From positions 1 to 32,044 of the forward strand of contig CAKZUU010000251.1 in the NCBI GenBank assembly GCA_937922175.1: a DNA stretch of 32,044 nucleotides. Direction: 5' to 3'. Of the stretch, positions 1,781 to 11,110 are shown in pieces. The position numbers were made by a program, and so were the translations under genes. This DNA is from an uncultured Gemmataceae bacterium. Its GTDB lineage: Bacteria > Planctomycetota > Planctomycetia > Gemmatales > Gemmataceae. Position 1 is the stretch's first letter. Each line of letters opens with the position of its first letter. The notes under the pieces were generated by a model. That model was not told where the DNA came from. It did no database searches and saw only the letters and a list, made by a program, of their open reading frames with translations.

Positions 1781-2110
1781 GTGGCATCCTCCTGAAGCTG
1801 AGTGTGTTTCCGAGCCTTCCCACGAGCATCGTAGGAGGCCCACGAGGCAAACGGCGTCGCCCCCGGAAAAAAGCCCTCTCCCGCGGATCGAATCGCCGTT
1901 GACCACTTGTCTTTTTCCGACCTTGATCCAACGTCAGCGAATCCCGTCCGTTGGGAAAGTCCGGCAAGATGCCCCGTTAAGAGTTTCGGTCAAAATCGTT
2001 CTTCAAAAAGGTCGGCCGCGACCGTCATTCCCTCCGCAATTATCATGCCTGAAACCGCCCGAAGCTTGGCGACGACGACCGGCGGTCGTGTCGGGCAGCG
2101 ACTGCACCGA

Positions 2111-2127
2111 ACGAACACATGGTTCGT
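2111..2127. promoter_or_regulatory. Inverted repeat ACGAAC-acatg-GTTCGT, candidate enhancer (UAS) for a sigma54 activator
   Basis: Perfect 6-bp half sites with 5-bp spacer, centred ~85 bp upstream of the -24 element at 2204. Confidence 0.35.
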
Positions 2128-2203
2128 ACCGGATCCGCACATTGCCAAGCTCACGACGTGAAAAGGCTCCTGCAAGTCGAGCTTCGTAACGGTACGGTCG
2201 TTT

Positions 2204-2219
2204 GGGCACGATGATTGCT
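2204..2219 (+). promoter_or_regulatory. Candidate sigma54 (-24/-12) promoter: GGGCACGATGATTGCT
   Basis: Matches TGGCACG-N4-TTGCW at all specified positions except the first, with correct GG/GC spacing; ~70 nt upstream of the cytochrome ATG at 2290. Confidence 0.65.
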
Positions 2220-2289: not shown

Positions 2290-2694
2290 ATGCGGCCGGA
2301 ATTGAAGTACAGGATCGCGTACTTGGGGGCCTGTCTGATTTGGGTCAGTGGAATTCTGCCGCGTGTGAACGCGGACGAGAAGCCGACGGACTGGATGCAA
2401 GTGAAGTTGCAGATGTCGCAAGAGATCCTGGCGGGGTTGACGCGGGGTGACCTGGCGGCAGTTGAGACACATGCCCAGAAGATGAATGTGGTGAATTTCA
2501 TGGAGAAGCTGGTGAGCTCGGACAAGCCGCATTACAAAGAATACACGAGGCAGTTGCAGGCCTTCGAAACAGCAAACCGCGACCTGCTGCGGCAGTCAGC
2601 GGCGAAGAACACCGAGGGGGCGACGTTGGCCTATGTGCAATTGACCATCAGTTGCGTGCAATGCCACAAGCTGATCCGTGACGCGAAGAAGTAG
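2290..2694 (+). CDS. Secreted cytochrome c family protein, C-terminal CxxCH (cytochrome c'-like arrangement)
   Basis: N-terminal signal-like hydrophobic segment (AYLGACLIWVSGILPRVNA); single heme motif SCVQCHK near the C-terminus after a mostly helical domain. Confidence 0.7.
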   Translation: MRPELKYRIAYLGACLIWVSGILPRVNADEKPTDWMQVKLQMSQEILAGLTRGDLAAVETHAQKMNVVNFMEKLVSSDKPHYKEYTRQLQAFETANRDLLRQSAAKNTEGATLAYVQLTISCVQCHKLIRDAKK

Positions 2695-2702
2695 CCGATT
2701 CG

Positions 2703-3176
2703 ATGGGAGTCAAGGAGCCGATCATGGGAACCTTTCCGCCGCGTTTGACGCTGCGAGCCGATACGGCCGCCGAACTGATGAGTGAGAACCCGATTTCGCT
2801 ACCGGAACATGCCTCGGTGAGCGACGCGATTGCGTTGATGGCCCGGAGAGGTTTTTCGGTGGCACCGGTGATTGACGCGGCCGGGCGTCCGGTGGGGGTG
2901 GTCAGCGTGAGCGATTTGATCATTCATGAACGAGAATTCGATCTGTTTCCGCGAGCCCCATCGGGAGAGCAAGCGATTGGCGAACCCCGCCAGGATCGCG
3001 CGACGGTGGCCGACATTATGACCCCTGCCGTCCTTTCGGTTCGACCGACGGCGTTGGCGGGTGAAGTTGTGCGGATCATGAACAGCTACCGCGTGCATCA
3101 CGTCTTCGTGGCCGACGAGACCGGAACCCTCATCGGCGTGATCGGCACAAGCGATTTGGTGCGGAAACTCGGCTAA
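2703..3176 (+). CDS. Tandem CBS domain-containing protein
   Basis: Two CBS repeats: LMSENPISLPEHASVSDAIALMARRGFSVAPVIDAAGRPVGVVSVSDL and IMTPAVLSVRPTALAGEVVRIMNSYRVHHVFVADETGTLIGVIGTSDLVR. Start may be 2724. Confidence 0.92.
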   Translation: MGVKEPIMGTFPPRLTLRADTAAELMSENPISLPEHASVSDAIALMARRGFSVAPVIDAAGRPVGVVSVSDLIIHEREFDLFPRAPSGEQAIGEPRQDRATVADIMTPAVLSVRPTALAGEVVRIMNSYRVHHVFVADETGTLIGVIGTSDLVRKLG

Positions 3177-3208
3177 TCCGGGTTGGTCAGAGCGGAATTC
3201 ACACATCA

Positions 3209-3224
3209 TGGCATGACCTTTGCA
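3209..3224 (+). promoter_or_regulatory. Candidate sigma54 (-24/-12) promoter: TGGCATGACCTTTGCA
   Basis: Matches TGGCACG-N4-TTGCW with one mismatch (C6 to T) and exact GG-N10-GC spacing; ~60 nt upstream of the BON-domain ATG at 3285. Confidence 0.7.
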
Positions 3225-3284
3225 GAATGCTGAAGGGGTTGCGACCGTAAGGCCACGATTGGATCGAACTCAGCGGAGGTCGCG

Positions 3285-3581
3285 ATGCTTTCTCTCAGCC
3301 AACCGAGTAGTGCGAATCCGTACCGCGAACTAAGTCGCGACCGGACGGAGGCCATCCGCCGACGCCTGGATCGGCGTGTTCCCGAGCTTCGCTTGTTTGT
3401 CACCGACGACGGCCTGATCCTCACGGGTCGCGCTTATTCGTGGTACGCGAAGCAATTAGCGCAACAGGCGGCATCTGAAATCACCGGCTTGCCGGTGGTG
3501 CGCAACGCTATCGAGGTAGCTCCGCCACGCCATTCGGAGGATACGCCGGACGAGGAGCGACGCCATGTTTCGGGACCGTGA
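3285..3581 (+). CDS. BON domain-containing protein
   Basis: RRRLDRRVPELRLFVTDDGLILTGRAYSWYAKQLAQQAASEITGLPVVRNAIEV is a BON-like core; RBS GCGGAGG before ATG. Confidence 0.8.
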   Translation: MLSLSQPSSANPYRELSRDRTEAIRRRLDRRVPELRLFVTDDGLILTGRAYSWYAKQLAQQAASEITGLPVVRNAIEVAPPRHSEDTPDEERRHVSGP

Positions 3582-4266
3582 AGATGCGGCGGTTCGACTC
3601 GCGGAGACCTTGCGGGAACGCCGGCTCAACAACCCGGTCGTGCTGGGGATTCCCCGAGGCGGCGTGGTCATCGCGGCCATGCTGGCACGCATGTTGCCCG
3701 CCGAACTCGACGTCATCTTGGCCCGCAAACTCCGCTCGCCGACCAATCCCGAAGCTGCTTTGGGGGCCCTCGCCGAAGACGGGAGCGTCGTCATGAACCC
3801 GGAAGCGGCCCGCCTCATCGAAGAATATCCCGAATACGTGGCCGACGAGAAAAAGCGACAATGGGCGGAGATCGAGCGTCGCCAACGCCTTTTCCGCAAT
3901 GTTCGACCTGCCGTCCCTCTCACGGGGCGGAGCGTCATCATCACCGACGACGGGATCGCGACGGGTTCGACCATGGCTGCCGCCCTCCGTGCCGCAAGAG
4001 CCCAAAAGCCCGAACAACTCATCGTGGCGGTTCCCGTCGCGTCTCCGGATCGTTTGGCGGAACTTCGGCCCCTGTGCGATGAGATCATCTGCCTGTCCGC
4101 TCCGGAAGACTTCTGGGCGGTCGGCCAATTCTACGACGATTTCTCACCTATCGAGGACAGTGACGTCATCGCCTTGCTGCGGGAGACGTCGGACCGCGGC
4201 CCTCCCTGCCCGCACGCGACGGCGGCTGTTCCTCTTGGGAGGACCGATCCATGTTCACCACACTGA
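3565..4266 (+). CDS. Phosphoribosyltransferase family protein
   Basis: PRPP-binding loop VIITDDGIATGSTMAAAL; N-term VVLGIPRGGVVIAAMLA...DVILARKLRSPTNPEAALGALAEDG typical of the predicted-phosphoribosyltransferase family. Overlaps the BON stop by 17 nt. Confidence 0.9.
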   Translation: MFRDREDAAVRLAETLRERRLNNPVVLGIPRGGVVIAAMLARMLPAELDVILARKLRSPTNPEAALGALAEDGSVVMNPEAARLIEEYPEYVADEKKRQWAEIERRQRLFRNVRPAVPLTGRSVIITDDGIATGSTMAAALRAARAQKPEQLIVAVPVASPDRLAELRPLCDEIICLSAPEDFWAVGQFYDDFSPIEDSDVIALLRETSDRGPPCPHATAAVPLGRTDPCSPH

Positions 4267-5372
4267 CGATTATCAAGGCCGACGTGGGCAGCATCGGCGG
4301 ACATATCGCCCCGAGTCGGCGTCTACTCGACACCATTACCCGACGCATCGCGAGTGACGGCGAAAGCCTCTTGAGCGACTTCTTCGTCGGCCACACCGGA
4401 GACGACATCGCCATCCTGATGGTCCACCCACGCGGGGTGGGAGACTCGGAGATTCATCGGCTGGCTTGGGATGCCTTCCGCGCCGGGACCGATTCGGCCA
4501 AGGACCAAGGGCTGTATGGAGCCGGCCAGGACTTGTTGGTGAGTTCCTTCAGCGGCAATGTCAAGGGAGCCGGTCCCGCTGTCGCTGAGATGGAATTCGA
4601 GGAGCGGCCGAACGAACCGTTCCTGATGTTCCTCGCCGACAAGACTGAGCCGGGCGCGTTCAATTTGCCTTTGTATCTCGCGTTCGCTGACCCGATGAAC
4701 ACGGCCGGGCTTCTCTTGAGCCCCGAAATCACCCAGGGTTTCCGCTTCCGGGTGCAAGACGTCAGTCACGTCGACGGTGATCGCGTCATCGAGTTGGAGG
4801 CCCCCGAGGACCTCTATCGCTTGGCGGCTCTGCTCCGCGACAATGATCGCTTCGTCGTCGAGTCCATTCGCAGCCGACACGACGGAGAGATCGCGGCGGT
4901 CGTCAGCACGCAACGGTTGCACAACATCGCCGGCAAATACACCGGTAAGGACGACCCGGTGATGCTTGTTCGAGTGCAGAAAAACTTCCCGGCGACGGGA
5001 GAGATTTTGGCCCCGTTCGCGGCCGCACCGTATGTCGGCGGCTTCATGCGCGGCAGCCATGTCGGACCTTTGATGCCCGTGAAACACGGCACCGGATGCA
5101 GCTATTTCGACGGTCCGCCCATCATTAGCTGCTGGGCCTTCTGTGTGCATCACGGACGACTCACCGAGGCCTTGGATCCGTTCGATCATCCCTTCTGGGA
5201 CACCGTGCGGGATCGCGCCGCCGAAAAAGCCTTGGAAATGCGTCGGCAAGGGTTCAGCGGCCCCGCCATGCTGCCTTACAGCGAGTTGGAATACGGCGGA
5301 ATCGTCAAGATCCTCGAATCTCTCGAGTCCAAGTTCACTGTCGTTCGCCAAGACGAACTGGCCGCCGTCTGA
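4251..5372 (+). CDS. Fructose-1,6-bisphosphate aldolase/phosphatase (archaeal-type, FBPA/P)
   Basis: LTIIKADVGSIGGH, HTGDDIAILMVH, QGLYGAGQDLL, VAEMEFEERPNEPFLMFLADKTEPGAFNLPLYLAFADP, VVSTQRLHNIAGKYTGKDDPVMLVRVQ, GGFMRGSHVGPLMPV. Confidence 0.93.
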   Translation: MFTTLTIIKADVGSIGGHIAPSRRLLDTITRRIASDGESLLSDFFVGHTGDDIAILMVHPRGVGDSEIHRLAWDAFRAGTDSAKDQGLYGAGQDLLVSSFSGNVKGAGPAVAEMEFEERPNEPFLMFLADKTEPGAFNLPLYLAFADPMNTAGLLLSPEITQGFRFRVQDVSHVDGDRVIELEAPEDLYRLAALLRDNDRFVVESIRSRHDGEIAAVVSTQRLHNIAGKYTGKDDPVMLVRVQKNFPATGEILAPFAAAPYVGGFMRGSHVGPLMPVKHGTGCSYFDGPPIISCWAFCVHHGRLTEALDPFDHPFWDTVRDRAAEKALEMRRQGFSGPAMLPYSELEYGGIVKILESLESKFTVVRQDELAAV

Positions 5373-5398
5373 CGGATGACCCAATCGGGAGGGTGGTC

Positions 5399-7285
5399 AT
5401 GACGACCCAACGGGATGATAAGACGACACCTGCTTCGCCCTCCGAGTTTCACGAGTTGTTGACCGAGCTGGCAGCCATTCGGGAGGATCTGGTGGCCGCG
5501 GCTCAGTCACCACCCGAATTGGAACACGTTCATCCCAATTACCAGGAAAGTGCCAAGAATCTGCTGCACTACCTGGCGCTGCGTCGGCGGGACCTGCGGC
5601 CCTTGCAGCTTCGGCTCGCCGCCTTGGGGTTGTCCTCGCTGGGTCGCGCGGAGTCGCACGTCCTGCATGCGGTCGATGCGGTCCTGAATGTGCTGCGTCG
5701 GGTCACGAAAACGAAAGCTCCTCCGGTCGAAGACCACTCGATCGGAGTCGATCTGGCCGGCGGTCAGAAATTACTCGCGTCCCATGCCGACGCCTTGCTC
5801 GGCCCAGCTCCGTCGGGTCGCTCGGTCCGCATTATGGTGACCATGCCCACGCAAGCCGCCCGAGATTATACGTTGGTTCACGACTTGCTCCGTCTGGGCA
5901 TGAACTGTCTGCGGATCAATTGCGCTCATGACCGACCCGAGCAGTGGCGACAGATGATCGATCATCTTCGCCGAGCCGAGCAATCTCTGGGGCGATCTTG
6001 TCGGGTGGTCATGGACCTGGCCGGTCCGAAGCTCCGCACAGGGCCCCTCGAGCCGGGCCCTGCCGTAATTCGGATTCGACCCCAGCGCGATGTCTTCGGT
6101 CGAGTGACCGCGCCCGCTCGGGTCTGGCTGACATCGAACGAGCGACCGGTGCCGCCGCCCTCCCCGGCGGATGCCGTCCTCCCCGTGTCGACGGCTTGGC
6201 TAGAGCGACTAAAGATCAATGACCGCGTTCGCTTCCGCGACGCTCGCGATGCTCGACGTGAATTCGAGATCGCCGACACGGTCACGGGCGGCAGCTGGGC
6301 TTTGTTGCGTCAGACGGCTTACGTCGTCCCGGGTACGGTCTTGCGGCGAGACAAAAAAGGTCACGCTCAGGAAACCGTGGTCGGCGAGTTTCCTCCGTGC
6401 GAGCAGGCGATTCGCCTCAACGTCGGCGATCACCTGATCATCACCCGCAACCAGCAACCGGGCCGACCGGCTCGATTCGACCCCTCGGGCCGCGTCCTCA
6501 CCCCAGCGAGGATCGGTTGTTCATTGCCGCAGGTCTTCGACGACGTTCGCCCAGGCGAGGCGATCTGGTTCGACGACGGCAAGATTGGGGGCGTGGTGGA
6601 TGAGATCAACGCGTCCGCGGTCCATGTCCACATCACGCATGCTCGCCTCGGTGGCGAGACCCTTCGGGCGGATAAGGGGATCAATCTACCGGAGAGCGAC
6701 CTTCGGTTACCTGCCCTCACAGAAGATGACCTGGACTGTTTGCCGTTTGTGGCTCAGCATGCCGACGTGGTCGAATTGTCGTTTGCCAATAACGCCGCTG
6801 ATGTCGATGCGTTGCGCGAGCAACTCGATCGCTTGGGCAATCGCTGCCCGGCGGTGGTGCTCAAAATCGAAACGAGGCGCGGCTTCGAGAATCTGCCGGC
6901 CATGCTACTGGCGGCCATGAAATTGCCCTGCGTGGGTGTCATGATCGCGCGCGGCGATTTGGCGGTGGAGTGTGGGTTCGAGCGCTTGGCCGAAGTGCAG
7001 GAAGAAATCCTTTGGGTCTGCGAGGCGGCCCATGTTCCGGTCATCTGGGCGACCCAAGTGCTCGAAAGCCTCGCGAAACAGGGGCTGCCCTCGCGGGCCG
7101 AAATCACCGACGCCGCTATGGGTCACCGGGCCGAGTGCGTCATGCTCAACAAGGGGCCTCACATGCTCTCCGCTGTCCGCGTCTTAGATGACATCCTCCG
7201 ACGCATGCAGGCCCACCAAGCGAAAAAACGCTCGATGATGCGCGAGTTGCGTCTGGCGCACCGGCTTCGGATACCAAGGTCCTGA
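5399..7285 (+). CDS. Non-canonical pyruvate kinase-like protein with N-terminal extension
   Basis: PK motifs GMNCLRINCAHD, VVMDLAGPKLRTGPL, VVLKIETRRGFENLP, GVMIARGDLAVE, ATQVLESL, PSRAEITDAA. ~140-aa N-terminal extension; VMLNKGPH replaces canonical VMLSGETA; no obvious C-terminal allosteric domain. Confidence 0.85.
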   Translation: MTTQRDDKTTPASPSEFHELLTELAAIREDLVAAAQSPPELEHVHPNYQESAKNLLHYLALRRRDLRPLQLRLAALGLSSLGRAESHVLHAVDAVLNVLRRVTKTKAPPVEDHSIGVDLAGGQKLLASHADALLGPAPSGRSVRIMVTMPTQAARDYTLVHDLLRLGMNCLRINCAHDRPEQWRQMIDHLRRAEQSLGRSCRVVMDLAGPKLRTGPLEPGPAVIRIRPQRDVFGRVTAPARVWLTSNERPVPPPSPADAVLPVSTAWLERLKINDRVRFRDARDARREFEIADTVTGGSWALLRQTAYVVPGTVLRRDKKGHAQETVVGEFPPCEQAIRLNVGDHLIITRNQQPGRPARFDPSGRVLTPARIGCSLPQVFDDVRPGEAIWFDDGKIGGVVDEINASAVHVHITHARLGGETLRADKGINLPESDLRLPALTEDDLDCLPFVAQHADVVELSFANNAADVDALREQLDRLGNRCPAVVLKIETRRGFENLPAMLLAAMKLPCVGVMIARGDLAVECGFERLAEVQEEILWVCEAAHVPVIWATQVLESLAKQGLPSRAEITDAAMGHRAECVMLNKGPHMLSAVRVLDDILRRMQAHQAKKRSMMRELRLAHRLRIPRS

Positions 7286-7314
7286 TCTTGTCTTTCCCGA
7301 CTCGGAGGTCTGCG

Positions 7315-7818
7315 ATGCTCCCGATCAAAACCATTCTCCATCCGACCGATTTTTCCGAAAGCGCCATGCTGGCCTTCGATCTGGCCTGTGCTCTCGCACG
7401 GGATTACGGTGCTCGGATGATCGTGCACCACGTCGAGGTTCCACCGGTTTATGTGCATGGCGAGGCGATTGTGCCCTTGGAACCGCCCGAAGCGGATACG
7501 GCTCTTTATGAGCAACTGAAAAGCATCCGACCGACCGACCCGAAGATTCCCATCGAGCATCTCCTGACTCGGGGCGACGTGGTCGACGACATTTTAATGA
7601 CCGCGGAGAAATCCAATGCCAATCTGATCGTCATGGGAACGCATGGTCGAGGCCCCCTGATGCGGTTGCTCTTGGGAAGTGTCGCCGAACAAATTGTGCG
7701 CAAGGCCTCCTGTCCGGTCCTTACCGTGAGGAAGTCGATCCCTGCCGAGGGGTCAGCTGAGAAAAAAGATGACAACGTCGCCGTCAGCGGGAATCTGTCG
7801 GGGTCGATTTTGCCTTGA
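7315..7818 (+). CDS. Universal stress protein (UspA family)
   Basis: MLPIKTILHPTDFSESAMLAFDLACALARDYGARMIVHHVEV ... IVMGTHGRGPLMRLLLGSVAEQIVRKASCPVLTVRK; RBS CGGAGG before ATG 7315. Confidence 0.95.
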   Translation: MLPIKTILHPTDFSESAMLAFDLACALARDYGARMIVHHVEVPPVYVHGEAIVPLEPPEADTALYEQLKSIRPTDPKIPIEHLLTRGDVVDDILMTAEKSNANLIVMGTHGRGPLMRLLLGSVAEQIVRKASCPVLTVRKSIPAEGSAEKKDDNVAVSGNLSGSILP

Positions 7819-8230
7819 GATCGCAAAGAGGGACGCCCAACAGGGTTAATGCCTCGGCGACTTTGTCCCGGATGAGATCGCGGACCGTGTTAAATTGCTC
7901 GGGAGACATGTACTTCGGGTCCGGGATCGACCAGTCGGCTCGATGTCGCGCCGGAATCCACGGACACGAGTCGCCGCACCCCATCGTCGCGACGAAGTCG
8001 AACTCGACTTGAGGCAGATCGTGAAGCGACTTCGAGGCGTGTGTACTCAGATCGTAGCCGAGTTCCCTCATGGCGGCGATCGCCTTGGGATTGACCACGC
8101 CGGAGGGGCGCGAGCCGGCGCTGTAGGCCTCGACTGCCGCTCCCCCAAGGATCCGGGCGAAAGCTTCGGCCATTTGGCTCCGATTCGCGTTCTCAACACA
8201 AACGAACAGCAACCGCTTTGGATGGTTCAT
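7784..8230 (-). CDS. arsC: Arsenate reductase / low-molecular-weight protein tyrosine phosphatase (ArsC, thioredoxin-type fold)
   Basis: [23 protein letters not shown]-loop, [58 protein letters not shown] overlap with the upstream aquaporin fragment. Confidence 0.9.
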
Positions 8231-8945
8231 GGGGCGGCCCTGTGATCTTTCCAGGTGCAACACGCTTCATCTCGAACACAACGGCAGGCCCAAGGGGCCG
8301 CCAGTGCTCCCAAAATAGGGGCCGTCCAATAAATCCACAGTTCCGACCATCGCCCCGAGACCAGCGCCGGGCCCAACGACCGGGCCGGATTCATCGACGC
8401 CCCCGAGATCGGCCCTCCGACAAGCGCCTCCAACGCCACCATACTGCCGATCGCCAGCCCCGCGAAGATGCCTTTCTCTTGTGCCCCGGTCGAGACACCG
8501 AGGATGACGAACATCAATCCCGCGGTCATCAATAGAATAGCTCCAACACCCACGATTGTGTCAGAGTTCCAGCCGGGATGGTGGCCCCGAGCCGATCATC
8601 CTGCGGAAACAACAGCCGGACCGTCACGCTCGCTGAGATCGCTCCGAGACACTGGGATGCGATATACGGCATGATCCACCGGGAGGGAAAACGTCGTGCC
8701 GCAGCAAATGCCAGGGTGACGGCGGGGTTGATGTGGGCTCCAGAGACGTCGCCAATCGCGGAAATCATGGCAAACACGACCAGCCCGAACGTTAAGGCGA
8801 CACCTTCATGGGCCAGGCTCCCCTCGCGGTGCACGACGATAGCTGCTGTGCCGGCAAACACTAAAGCATAGGTTCCGATGAATTCCGCCACGAGCTTCCT
8901 CGATAGGGGGACCGACTGCGCCACTGCGGAACTCTCCCAAACCAT
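8227..8945 (-). pseudogene. MIP/aquaporin family channel, frameshifted into two ORFs (8529..8945 and 8227..8529)
   Basis: First NPA in SGAHINPAVTLAF (5' half), second in [14 protein letters not shown] (3' half). The halves are in different frames, separated by a 5-bp tandem duplication at 8531..8540. Confidence 0.85.
8531..8540. repeat. 5-bp tandem duplication AATAG AATAG causing the aquaporin frameshift
   Basis: Direct reading: gtcatc AATAG AATAG ctccaac. Deleting one unit gives minus-strand GTG TTG GAG CTA TTG ATG ACC GCG (VLELLMTA), joining both halves in frame. Confidence 0.9.
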
Positions 8946-9066
8946 TTGTTGACCCCGCTCTCAATTTACGGGCCCTCGTCGATGTCGGCCGGCTCGTGCT
9001 TGAAGGCGCGGGCGCACGTTCGTAGATTTCCGGGAATGCTGTCGTTTCCTCCACGGAGGCCGAGTC

Positions 9067-9966
9067 ATGGCTTCGCGCGGTGACCAATTCGCCGGCGTCA
9101 CAGTCGCGCTCGTGACGCCGTTCCGCAATGGCGACATTGACTTCGAGGAGTTGGGCCGACTCGTCGATTGGCATGTGGAACAGGGGACGGACTGTCTCGC
9201 CCCTGTTGGCACCACCGGAGAATCACCCACGTTGGATCATGAGGAACACGAACGTGTCATCGCCTTTGTGTGTGAGCGAGTCCGGGGGCGCATCAAGACG
9301 ATGCCCGGAACCGGGTCGAACAGCACCCGCGAAGCGATTCGCCTGACGAAGTTCGCGAAGAAGGCCGGAGCCGACGGCGTGCTCATGGTGGGACCCTACT
9401 ACAACAAGCCGACGCAAGAGGGATACTATCAACACTTCCGTGCCGTCGCCGATGCCGTCGATATTCCCATCGTGCTCTATAACATCCCCGGTCGCACCGG
9501 GTCCAACATTCTTCCGGAAACGATCGCTCGTATCGCCCAACATCCCAACGTGGTTGCCGTTAAAGAGGCGACCGGGTCACTGGATCAAGCCTCCCAGATC
9601 GCCCAATTGTGCGACATCGCGATCCTTTCAGGCGACGACAGCTTGACTTTGCCGCTCATGAGTATCGGCGGGAAAGGCGTCGTTTCCGTCGTGGGCAACA
9701 TCGTCCCGCGCGACATGAAAGGGCTGGTCGGCAGCTTCCTGAAAGGTGACATCGCTGCCGCCCAATCCTGGCACCGCAAGTTGTTCCCCCTGTGTCGGGA
9801 CATGCTGGGTGTGGCGACGAATCCAATCCCCATTAAATGCGCGCTGAAACTCCTCGGCCGGGGAACAGGCGAATTACGCCTCCCCATGACCCCCCTCGAC
9901 GCTGCCGGAGAGGCGCGAGTCCGCCAAACCTTGGTGCAGTACGGTTTGATCAAGTCACCGGCCTGA
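9067..9966 (+). CDS. dapA: 4-hydroxy-tetrahydrodipicolinate synthase
   Basis: [106 protein letters not shown]. Confidence 0.97.
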
Positions 9967-9985
9967 TGCTCGATAGGTTCCGAAG

Positions 9986-11110
9986 GTGCGACAATTGTCC
10001 CCAAGAATTGCCAAACTCGCTCTCGAAGACGGCACCGTATTCACCGGTCGCGCTTTCGGCGCTCCCGGTGAACGCTTCGGCGAAGTCGTCTTCAATACCA
10101 GCATGACGGGCTATCAAGAGGTCCTGACCGATCCGTCTTACAAGGGTCAGATCGTCACAATGACCTACCCGCATATCGGCAACTATGGTGTCACCGACGA
10201 GGATAAAGAATCGCGTGGCCCGCAGGTCGAGGGCTTCGTCATCCGGGAACTGGCCGTACATCCCAGCAACTTCCGCTCGCAGAAGACGTTAAACGAATAC
10301 CTCGCCGAACACGGTATCATCGGGTTGGAAGGGATCGACACCCGCGCGTTGGTCCGTCGGTTGCGTCTTCGCGGGGCCATGACCGGCGTGCTCTCCACCG
10401 AAGACCTCGACGACGCCTCCCTGGTGCGGAAGGCGCGATCGGCTCCAAGCATCGTTGGACGAGACCTCGTCCAACAGGTCCTTCCCACAGAACCGTTTGA
10501 ATGGCACGAGGGATTCGTCAGCCCGTTGGTCGCGCATCTAGCACCCCGACCGATCACTCGCCATGTCGTCGCGTTGGACTTCGGCATGAAATGGAACATC
10601 CTCCGCTGCCTGGTTCAAGTCGGTTGCCGTGTCACCGTCCTGCCTGGGAACGCCAGCGCCGAAGAGGTGCTCCGACTCGACCCGGACGGCATCTTCTTGT
10701 CGAACGGGCCAGGGGATCCCGAGCCTCTCACGTATGCCCATGAGACGATTCGCCGGCTCGTGGGGCACAAACCGATCTTCGGTATCTGCCTGGGCCATCA
10801 GCTGCTCGGGTTGGCTTTAGGCGCCAAGACCTTCAAGTTGAAATTCGGACATCGCGGTGCCAACCATCCTGTGCGGAATGAGCAAACTCGTCAGATCGAA
10901 ATCACAACGCAAAACCACGGTTTCGCTATCGATACCGATTCGCTGCCGTCAGATTTGATTCCGACTCATGTCAATTTGAACGATGGGACGTTGGAGGGGA
11001 TGCGGCACCGTCGCTTCCCCGTGTTCAGCGTCCAGTATCACCCCGAGGCGAGTGCCGGTCCGCACGACAGCGTTTACTTGTTCGAGGAATTTCGGTCGAT
11101 GCTGGGCTAG
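9986..11110 (+). CDS. carA: Carbamoyl-phosphate synthase small subunit
   Basis: [67 protein letters not shown], glutaminase motif [37 protein letters not shown] start. Confidence 0.96.

What the first reader, a model, noticed from the sequence alone, without database searches (positions are those of the whole stretch)
2111..2219. Second sigma54 promoter with an enhancer-like inverted repeat upstream of the cytochrome/CBS genes
GGGCACGATGATTGCT (2204-2219) fits the consensus except at base 1. A perfect ACGAAC-N5-GTTCGT inverted repeat sits ~85 bp upstream, typical for an enhancer-binding-protein site. Two near-consensus sigma54 sites ~1 kb apart, both oriented into the same stress island, are unlikely to be coincidental.
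Basis: partly seen in the sequence, partly recalled or inferred. Interest (0 to 1): 0.7.

Follow-up and report, generated by a model that had tools for sequence, protein, structure and literature searches.

The report
Sigma-54 promoter with misidentified enhancer site
A DNA switch in front of a small cytochrome gene is very probably a real sigma-54 promoter belonging to a family-wide stress (probably low-oxygen) regulon, but the activator's docking site is a neighbouring conserved motif (TGTGCGG), not the inverted repeat that was first pointed out.

Summary
The sequences are exactly as described. GGGCACGATGATTGCT (2204-2219) is very probably a real sigma-54 promoter: RpoN is encoded, the site lies 86 bp before the cytochrome start, and five cytochrome genes in four related genomes carry a sigma-54 site 54-87 bp before their start. 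In 23 of 30 orthologous CBS genes of the family a site sits at -46 to -78 on the coding strand, and in 12 of these the first base is not T, so the G here is no defect. The ACGAAC-N5-GTTCGT repeat is another matter: it occurs once in the genome, is not conserved above chance, and 6-bp-arm repeats are common. The same upstream regions share a different element, TGTGCGGAWTCCGCACA (exact half-sites 19 versus 1.8 expected). A motif trained without the window has its best hit in all 32 kb at 2126-2141, abutting the repeat. The likely activator is an NmpR-like response-regulator enhancer-binding protein (own contig C335), whose operon carries the same layout. Relatives place such activators beside CBS, Usp, cytochrome and globin-coupled kinase genes, as in Myxococcus NmpRSTU (hypoxia-linked). 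Sigma-54 before CBS and Usp genes in Planctomycetes was already predicted; operator and activator assignment appear to be new detail.

The parts
2204..2219 (+). sigma-54 -24/-12 promoter element GGGCACGATGATTGCT; predicted transcription start about 2230 (inferred)
   Evidence: cytochrome genes of relatives have an equivalent site 54-87 bp before the start; CBS orthologues have one in 23/30 cases
2126..2141 (.). predicted upstream activating site GTACCGGATCCGCACA, with an exact half-site CCGCACA (TGTGCGG on the other strand) at 2135-2141
   Evidence: top hit in the whole 32 kb of a motif trained on 26 related promoters without the window; 0 of 143 control upstream segments reach its score of 13.6
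2111..2127 (.).
   Evidence: the weak second half-site is inference only
2290..2694 (+). secreted mono-haem cytochrome c (SCVQCH near the C-terminus), 134 aa, weakly like cytochrome c'/c556
   Evidence: weak PF01322 match, E 0.027, below the family cut-off
2703..3176 (+). protein with two CBS domains, probably co-transcribed with the cytochrome (8-bp gap)
   Evidence: CBS next to the cytochrome in other genomes
3209..3224 (+). second sigma-54 site TGGCATGACCTTTGCA, 76 bp before the BON-like gene
   Evidence: one of 4 exact consensus sites in the genome; 19.2 bits
3068..3074 (+). exact TGTGCGG 141 bp upstream of the 3209 site, inside the CBS gene; possible half-site, weak
   Evidence: may be chance within coding sequence
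3285..7818 (+). rest of the island: BON-like, phosphoribosyltransferase, fructose-1,6-bisphosphatase, pyruvate kinase, Usp

Best explanation
2204-2219 is a genuine sigma-54 promoter for the cytochrome-CBS transcription unit. It is activated by an NmpR-like (NtrC-family) response-regulator enhancer-binding protein bound at the conserved TGTGCGG-type operator at 2126-2141, about 65-80 bp upstream. The closest own-genome candidate for that protein is the one on contig C335. Phosphorylation through a multi-kinase relay, most likely in response to low oxygen or respiratory stress, would let it form hexamers, loop to RNAP-sigma54 and open the promoter. It would switch on a dispersed stress regulon (CBS, Usp, periplasmic cytochrome). 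Shown by computation: the promoter element, its conservation, the operator motif and the presence of RpoN and the activator. Inferred: protein-operator binding, the signal and the expression outcome.
For: RpoN and several enhancer-binding proteins are encoded. In 23/30 CBS orthologues of the family a sigma-54 site lies at -46 to -78: 24 of 25 sense hits fall in one 40-bp bin, against 6 scattered antisense hits; 12 of the 23 do not have T at base 1. Five cytochrome homologues in four related genomes have sigma-54 sites 54-87 bp before the start with CGCACA/TGTGCG half-sites upstream; L108 has GATCCGCACA as in the window. The palindrome motif scores log-likelihood 82-90 against 37-46 for ten shuffled sets. 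Exact half-sites number 19 against 1.8 expected, concentrated 75-150 bp upstream. The window's best motif hit in 32 kb is 2126-2141. Of 143 own-genome gene starts only this promoter and the CBS paralogue on C144 have both elements. The own C335 operon (PAS kinase, receiver, receiver-kinase, activator) has sigma-54 site TGGCACGACGAATGCT with half-sites 20 bp apart at -138/-118. The C335 protein groups with island activators of relatives (support 100/99) and shares their recognition helix ISRRALYRL. Relatives place such activators next to CBS, cytochrome, Usp and protoglobin-kinase genes.
Against: No expression or binding data. Most cytochrome homologues outside these cases show no sigma-54 site directly upstream. 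The window operator has only one exact half-site, closer to the promoter (-69) than the usual -80 to -145. C335 may be a sister group of the island activators, not a strict orthologue (53% identity). No protoglobin kinase was found in this 76%-complete assembly, so the oxygen signal is borrowed from relatives and from Myxococcus.
Confidence: 0.72

Rival explanations
1. The sigma-54 promoter is real and the enhancer is the ACGAAC-N5-GTTCGT repeat itself, bound by a genome-specific activator.
For: Perfect 6-bp arms, unique in the genome, about 86 bp from the promoter.
Against: Not conserved in 26 related promoters (7-9 of 12, as in shuffles); such repeats are frequent; no second copy in the genome, unlike a regulon operator; a better supported motif abuts it.
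Confidence: 0.1
2. The site at 2204 is a chance match and the cytochrome gene is expressed from another promoter.
For: One-mismatch sites are only about twice as frequent genome-wide as the reversed control; base 1 deviates.
Against: Position, strand, conserved placement in cytochrome and CBS homologues, and the co-located operator; first-base deviations are common in this family; no sigma-70-like site in 1780-2300.
Confidence: 0.12
3. The promoter and the TGTGCGG operator are real, but the activator is another enhancer-binding protein (a DctD-like one, or one missing from the incomplete assembly), with a signal other than oxygen.
For: The published Rhizobium meliloti DctD site, TGTGCGgaaatCCGCACA (PMC11077940), has the same half-sites; the assembly is 76% complete; the own C335 relay starts with a PAS kinase, not a globin.
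Against: The C335-type activator gene lies next to sigma-54/half-site promoters in three genomes: its own operon here, Usp in G013 and the cytochrome in G016.
Confidence: 0.2

Closest known systems
NmpRSTU system of Myxococcus xanthus (PMC11841059, PMC6211767)
   Same: Sigma-54 promoters with paired inverted operators; NtrC-like response regulator; regulon with a CBS protein as first gene of the nmpR operon and ties to oxygen use; globin kinase and further relay genes; synteny in Planctomycetes already noted by its authors. Relatives of this genome show globin kinase - receiver - receiver-PAS-kinase - CBS - activator clusters.
   Different: The NmpR operator is GCGCA-N5-TGCGC, here TGTGCG-N4/5-CGCACA; no globin kinase found in this genome; the cytochrome is an added target; hypoxia response untested here.
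DctD operator of Rhizobium meliloti (TGTGCGgaaatCCGCACA, PMC11077940)
   Same: Same half-sites, inverted arrangement, tandem sites upstream of a sigma-54 promoter.
   Different: Spacer 4-5 instead of 6; target genes unrelated to dicarboxylate transport; activator clade not compared directly with DctD.
Predicted sigma-54 regulon of Planctomycetia (PMC12316311)
   Same: Sigma-54 promoters predicted before Usp (COG0589) and mentioned for CBS (COG0517) genes.
   Different: That paper says it has no activator-promoter assignments for all its organisms; the word cytochrome does not occur in its main text.

Membership tests
sigma-54-dependent promoter | GG-N10-GC core within TGGCACG-N4-TTGCW | tested here: met
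   core intact, only base 1 deviates
sigma-54-dependent promoter | rpoN and AAA+ enhancer-binding proteins in the genome | tested here: met
sigma-54-dependent promoter | conserved placement before orthologous genes | tested here: met
sigma-54-dependent promoter | rpoN-dependent transcription from the site | not testable with these tools
   needs RNA or reporter data
enhancer (upstream activating) site = ACGAAC-N5-GTTCGT | recurrence at other promoters of the regulon or conservation in relatives | tested here: not met
enhancer (upstream activating) site = TGTGCGG palindrome 2126-2141 | recurrence upstream of sigma-54 promoters of orthologous genes at a set distance | tested here: met
   the window copy has one exact half-site at -69 and a degenerate partner
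NmpRSTU-type system | NtrC-like response regulator of the island-activator clade in the genome | tested here: met
   C335, receiver-AAA-Fis HTH, clade support 100/99; NmpR itself was not in the tree
NmpRSTU-type system | globin-coupled oxygen-sensing kinase | tested here: not met
   no protoglobin in the 76%-complete own assembly; present in relatives G018, G019, G024
NmpRSTU-type system | GCGCA-N5-TGCGC operator | tested here: not met
   the family motif is TGTGCG-N4/5-CGCACA
NmpRSTU-type system | induction by hypoxia | not testable with these tools
   needs culture or transcriptome data

The most novel reading that the evidence does not exclude
A whole planctomycete family runs a dispersed sigma-54 stress regulon (CBS, Usp, periplasmic cytochrome) through one NmpR-like activator and a conserved TGTGCGG operator. 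The sensor end of the relay has been swapped between lineages (globin kinase in some, PAS kinase in this one) while operator and targets stayed the same.
Probability: 0.45. Interest if true: 0.6.

Novelty: new member of a known kind. Interest (0 to 1): 0.47.

Why it matters
It turns an isolated promoter guess into a testable regulon: a defined operator, a named candidate activator and a list of target genes, in a bacterial phylum where few sigma-54 circuits have an assigned activator. It also suggests that the CBS/Usp stress islands of these bacteria are switched on by a respiratory or oxygen signal, as in Myxococcus.

Tried and rejected
(1) ACGAAC-N5-GTTCGT as a regulon operator: unique in the genome, not conserved. 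(2) Full operator pattern TGTGCGGAWTCCGCACA with up to 3 mismatches in the own genome: only 6 places, and not the window copy, so half-site plus sigma-54 context is needed. (3) The own contig C315 activator as cognate: it belongs to a different clade. (4) Nucleotide-level footprinting with a close relative: impossible, because the one congeneric genome lacks the cytochrome and the one named genome hit is only 44% identical with no sigma-54 site found upstream. (5) A divergent sigma-54 promoter at 2035-2050 on the minus strand: 11.4 bits only, and a terminator-like hairpin follows at once at 2023-2010. (6) A globin oxygen sensor in the own genome: none found.

Full report
What is there. The site faces a 134-aa secreted mono-haem cytochrome gene (2290-2694) followed after 8 bp by a gene for a protein with two CBS domains (2703-3176). 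A second sigma-54 site at 3209 faces a BON-like gene, a phosphoribosyltransferase, a fructose-1,6-bisphosphatase, a pyruvate kinase and a Usp gene. The window is one contig (C251) of a 3.4 Mb, 76%-complete assembly, probably a planctomycete: the only named genome with a cytochrome relative is a Planctomycetota MAG.

Is the sigma-54 site more than chance? On sequence alone only moderately so: 3 sites of at least 14 bits in the window against 0.4 expected (the matrix was written from general knowledge, so its values are approximate). Genome-wide there are 67 exact or one-mismatch sites against 34 for the reversed pattern. Comparative evidence is much stronger. RpoN is encoded. In 30 orthologous CBS loci of the family, 23 have a sigma-54 site at -46 to -78 on the coding strand; 24 of 25 sense hits fall in one 40-bp bin, against 6 scattered antisense hits. 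In 12 of those 23 the first base is C, G or A, so the G at 2204 is normal for this family. Five cytochrome homologues in four genomes (L052 and L102 of G016, L093 of G008, L108 of G004, L130 of G017) have their own sigma-54 site 54-87 bp before the start; L130's TGGCACGACGATTGCT closely resembles the window site. Elsewhere the cytochrome sits in a sigma-54-led CBS operon, for example CBS-CBS-cytochrome in G030.

Is the inverted repeat the enhancer? Probably not. It is unique in the genome. Perfect 6-bp-arm repeats with short loops occur 0.44 times per 250 bp in the window and 1.15 times per 250 bp in related upstream regions. The best matches to ACGAAC-N5-GTTCGT in 26 related promoters are 7-9 of 12, the same as shuffled sequence. 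An unbiased palindromic motif search on those 26 promoters, without the window, finds TGTGCG-AATT-CGCACA, best as the 17-mer TGTGCGGAWTCCGCACA. Its log-likelihood is 82-90, against 37-46 for ten shuffled sets. Exact TGTGCGG half-sites number 19 against 1.8 expected, peaking 75-150 bp upstream, often in pairs 20-24 bp apart. None of 143 control upstream segments reaches its score, and only this promoter and the CBS paralogue on contig C144 have both elements among the own-genome starts tested; those starts were enriched for loci fetched by sigma-54 searches.

Which activator? A receiver remnant beside the G030 island led to a clade of response-regulator enhancer-binding proteins that lie in or beside the islands of relatives. 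G027 has CBS, CBS, cytochrome, activator. G018 has protoglobin kinase, receiver, receiver-PAS-kinase, ANTAR regulator, CBS, activator. G019 has cytochrome, Usp, protoglobin kinase, activator. G024 has protoglobin kinase, activator and a Usp gene with half-sites and a sigma-54 site. Domains were verified with Pfam. The own genome's closest member is on contig C335 (53% identity against 45% for the next own protein; clade support 100/99) and shares the recognition helix ISRRALYRL. Its operon is PAS kinase, receiver, receiver-kinase, activator, preceded by TGGCACGACGAATGCT with CCGCACG and TCGCACA half-sites 20 bp apart at -138/-118, that is, the same promoter layout. C335-type genes of relatives (61-70% identical) adjoin a Usp gene with a sigma-54 site and TGTGCG pairs in G013, and the sigma-54 cytochrome gene in G016.

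How it most likely works (inference from here). A kinase relay phosphorylates the activator, which binds TGTGCGG-type operators, contacts RNAP-sigma54 and opens the promoters of dispersed CBS, Usp and cytochrome genes. The signal is probably low oxygen or respiratory stress. The closest studied system, M. xanthus NmpRSTU, has a similar gene set; its CBS gene mxan_4236 heads the nmpR operon and rises 6.5-fold in hypoxia in an NmpR-dependent way (PMC11841059), and its authors noted synteny in Planctomycetes (PMC6211767). The own genome has a PAS kinase and no detected globin, so the signal is the weakest step.

Membership and novelty. As a sigma-54 promoter it meets every sequence-level criterion tested. 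As an NmpRSTU member it fails two tested features (globin kinase in this genome; GCGCA-N5-TGCGC operator), so it is described as working like that system, not as a member. The operator half-sites equal the published Rhizobium meliloti DctD site TGTGCGgaaatCCGCACA (PMC11077940). Sigma-54 control of Usp and CBS genes in Planctomycetes was predicted before (PMC12316311). What appears new, within the open-access library searched, is the operator, the activator assignment and the cytochrome target.

Limits.

Noticed in passing
window 2035-2050 (-): AGGCATGATAATTGCG, a weak sigma-54-like site facing the divergent DUF2934 gene (1496-1780, -); a terminator-like hairpin at 2023-2010 right behind it argues against use as a promoter.
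   Followed up: partly
window 3683-3698 (+): TGGCACGCATGTTGCC, a strong sigma-54 match but inside the phosphoribosyltransferase coding sequence; probably coincidental.
   Followed up: no
L113:1863-1878 (G000:C78): Best sigma-54 site found in the genome (TGGCACGTTGATTGCA) with no called gene for about 490 bp downstream; could drive a small RNA or an unrecognised small gene.
   Followed up: no
L210 (G000:C335), 2827-10565: The activator operon lies beside an HSP20 gene and a GNAT/ATP-grasp acyl-CoA synthetase gene; its predicted operator lies inside the start of the latter's called coding region.
   Followed up: partly
L119:4883-5297 (-): Receiver domain of an enhancer-binding protein reduced to a frameshifted remnant, divergent from the sigma-54-led CBS operon (assembly error or pseudogene).
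   Followed up: partly
L035 (G000:C47:8475): Intergenic TGGCACCAGTTTTGCA with CCGCACA 61 bp upstream: a possible further regulon member.
   Followed up: no
L111:1-6400 (G000:C144): Genes that look by eye like a type III CRISPR (Cmr) cluster upstream of the CBS paralogue.
   Followed up: no
L206:8322-8563 (G024): Usp gene preceded by TGTGCGG/CCGCACA and a sigma-54 site, next to the activator and a protoglobin kinase.
   Followed up: yes
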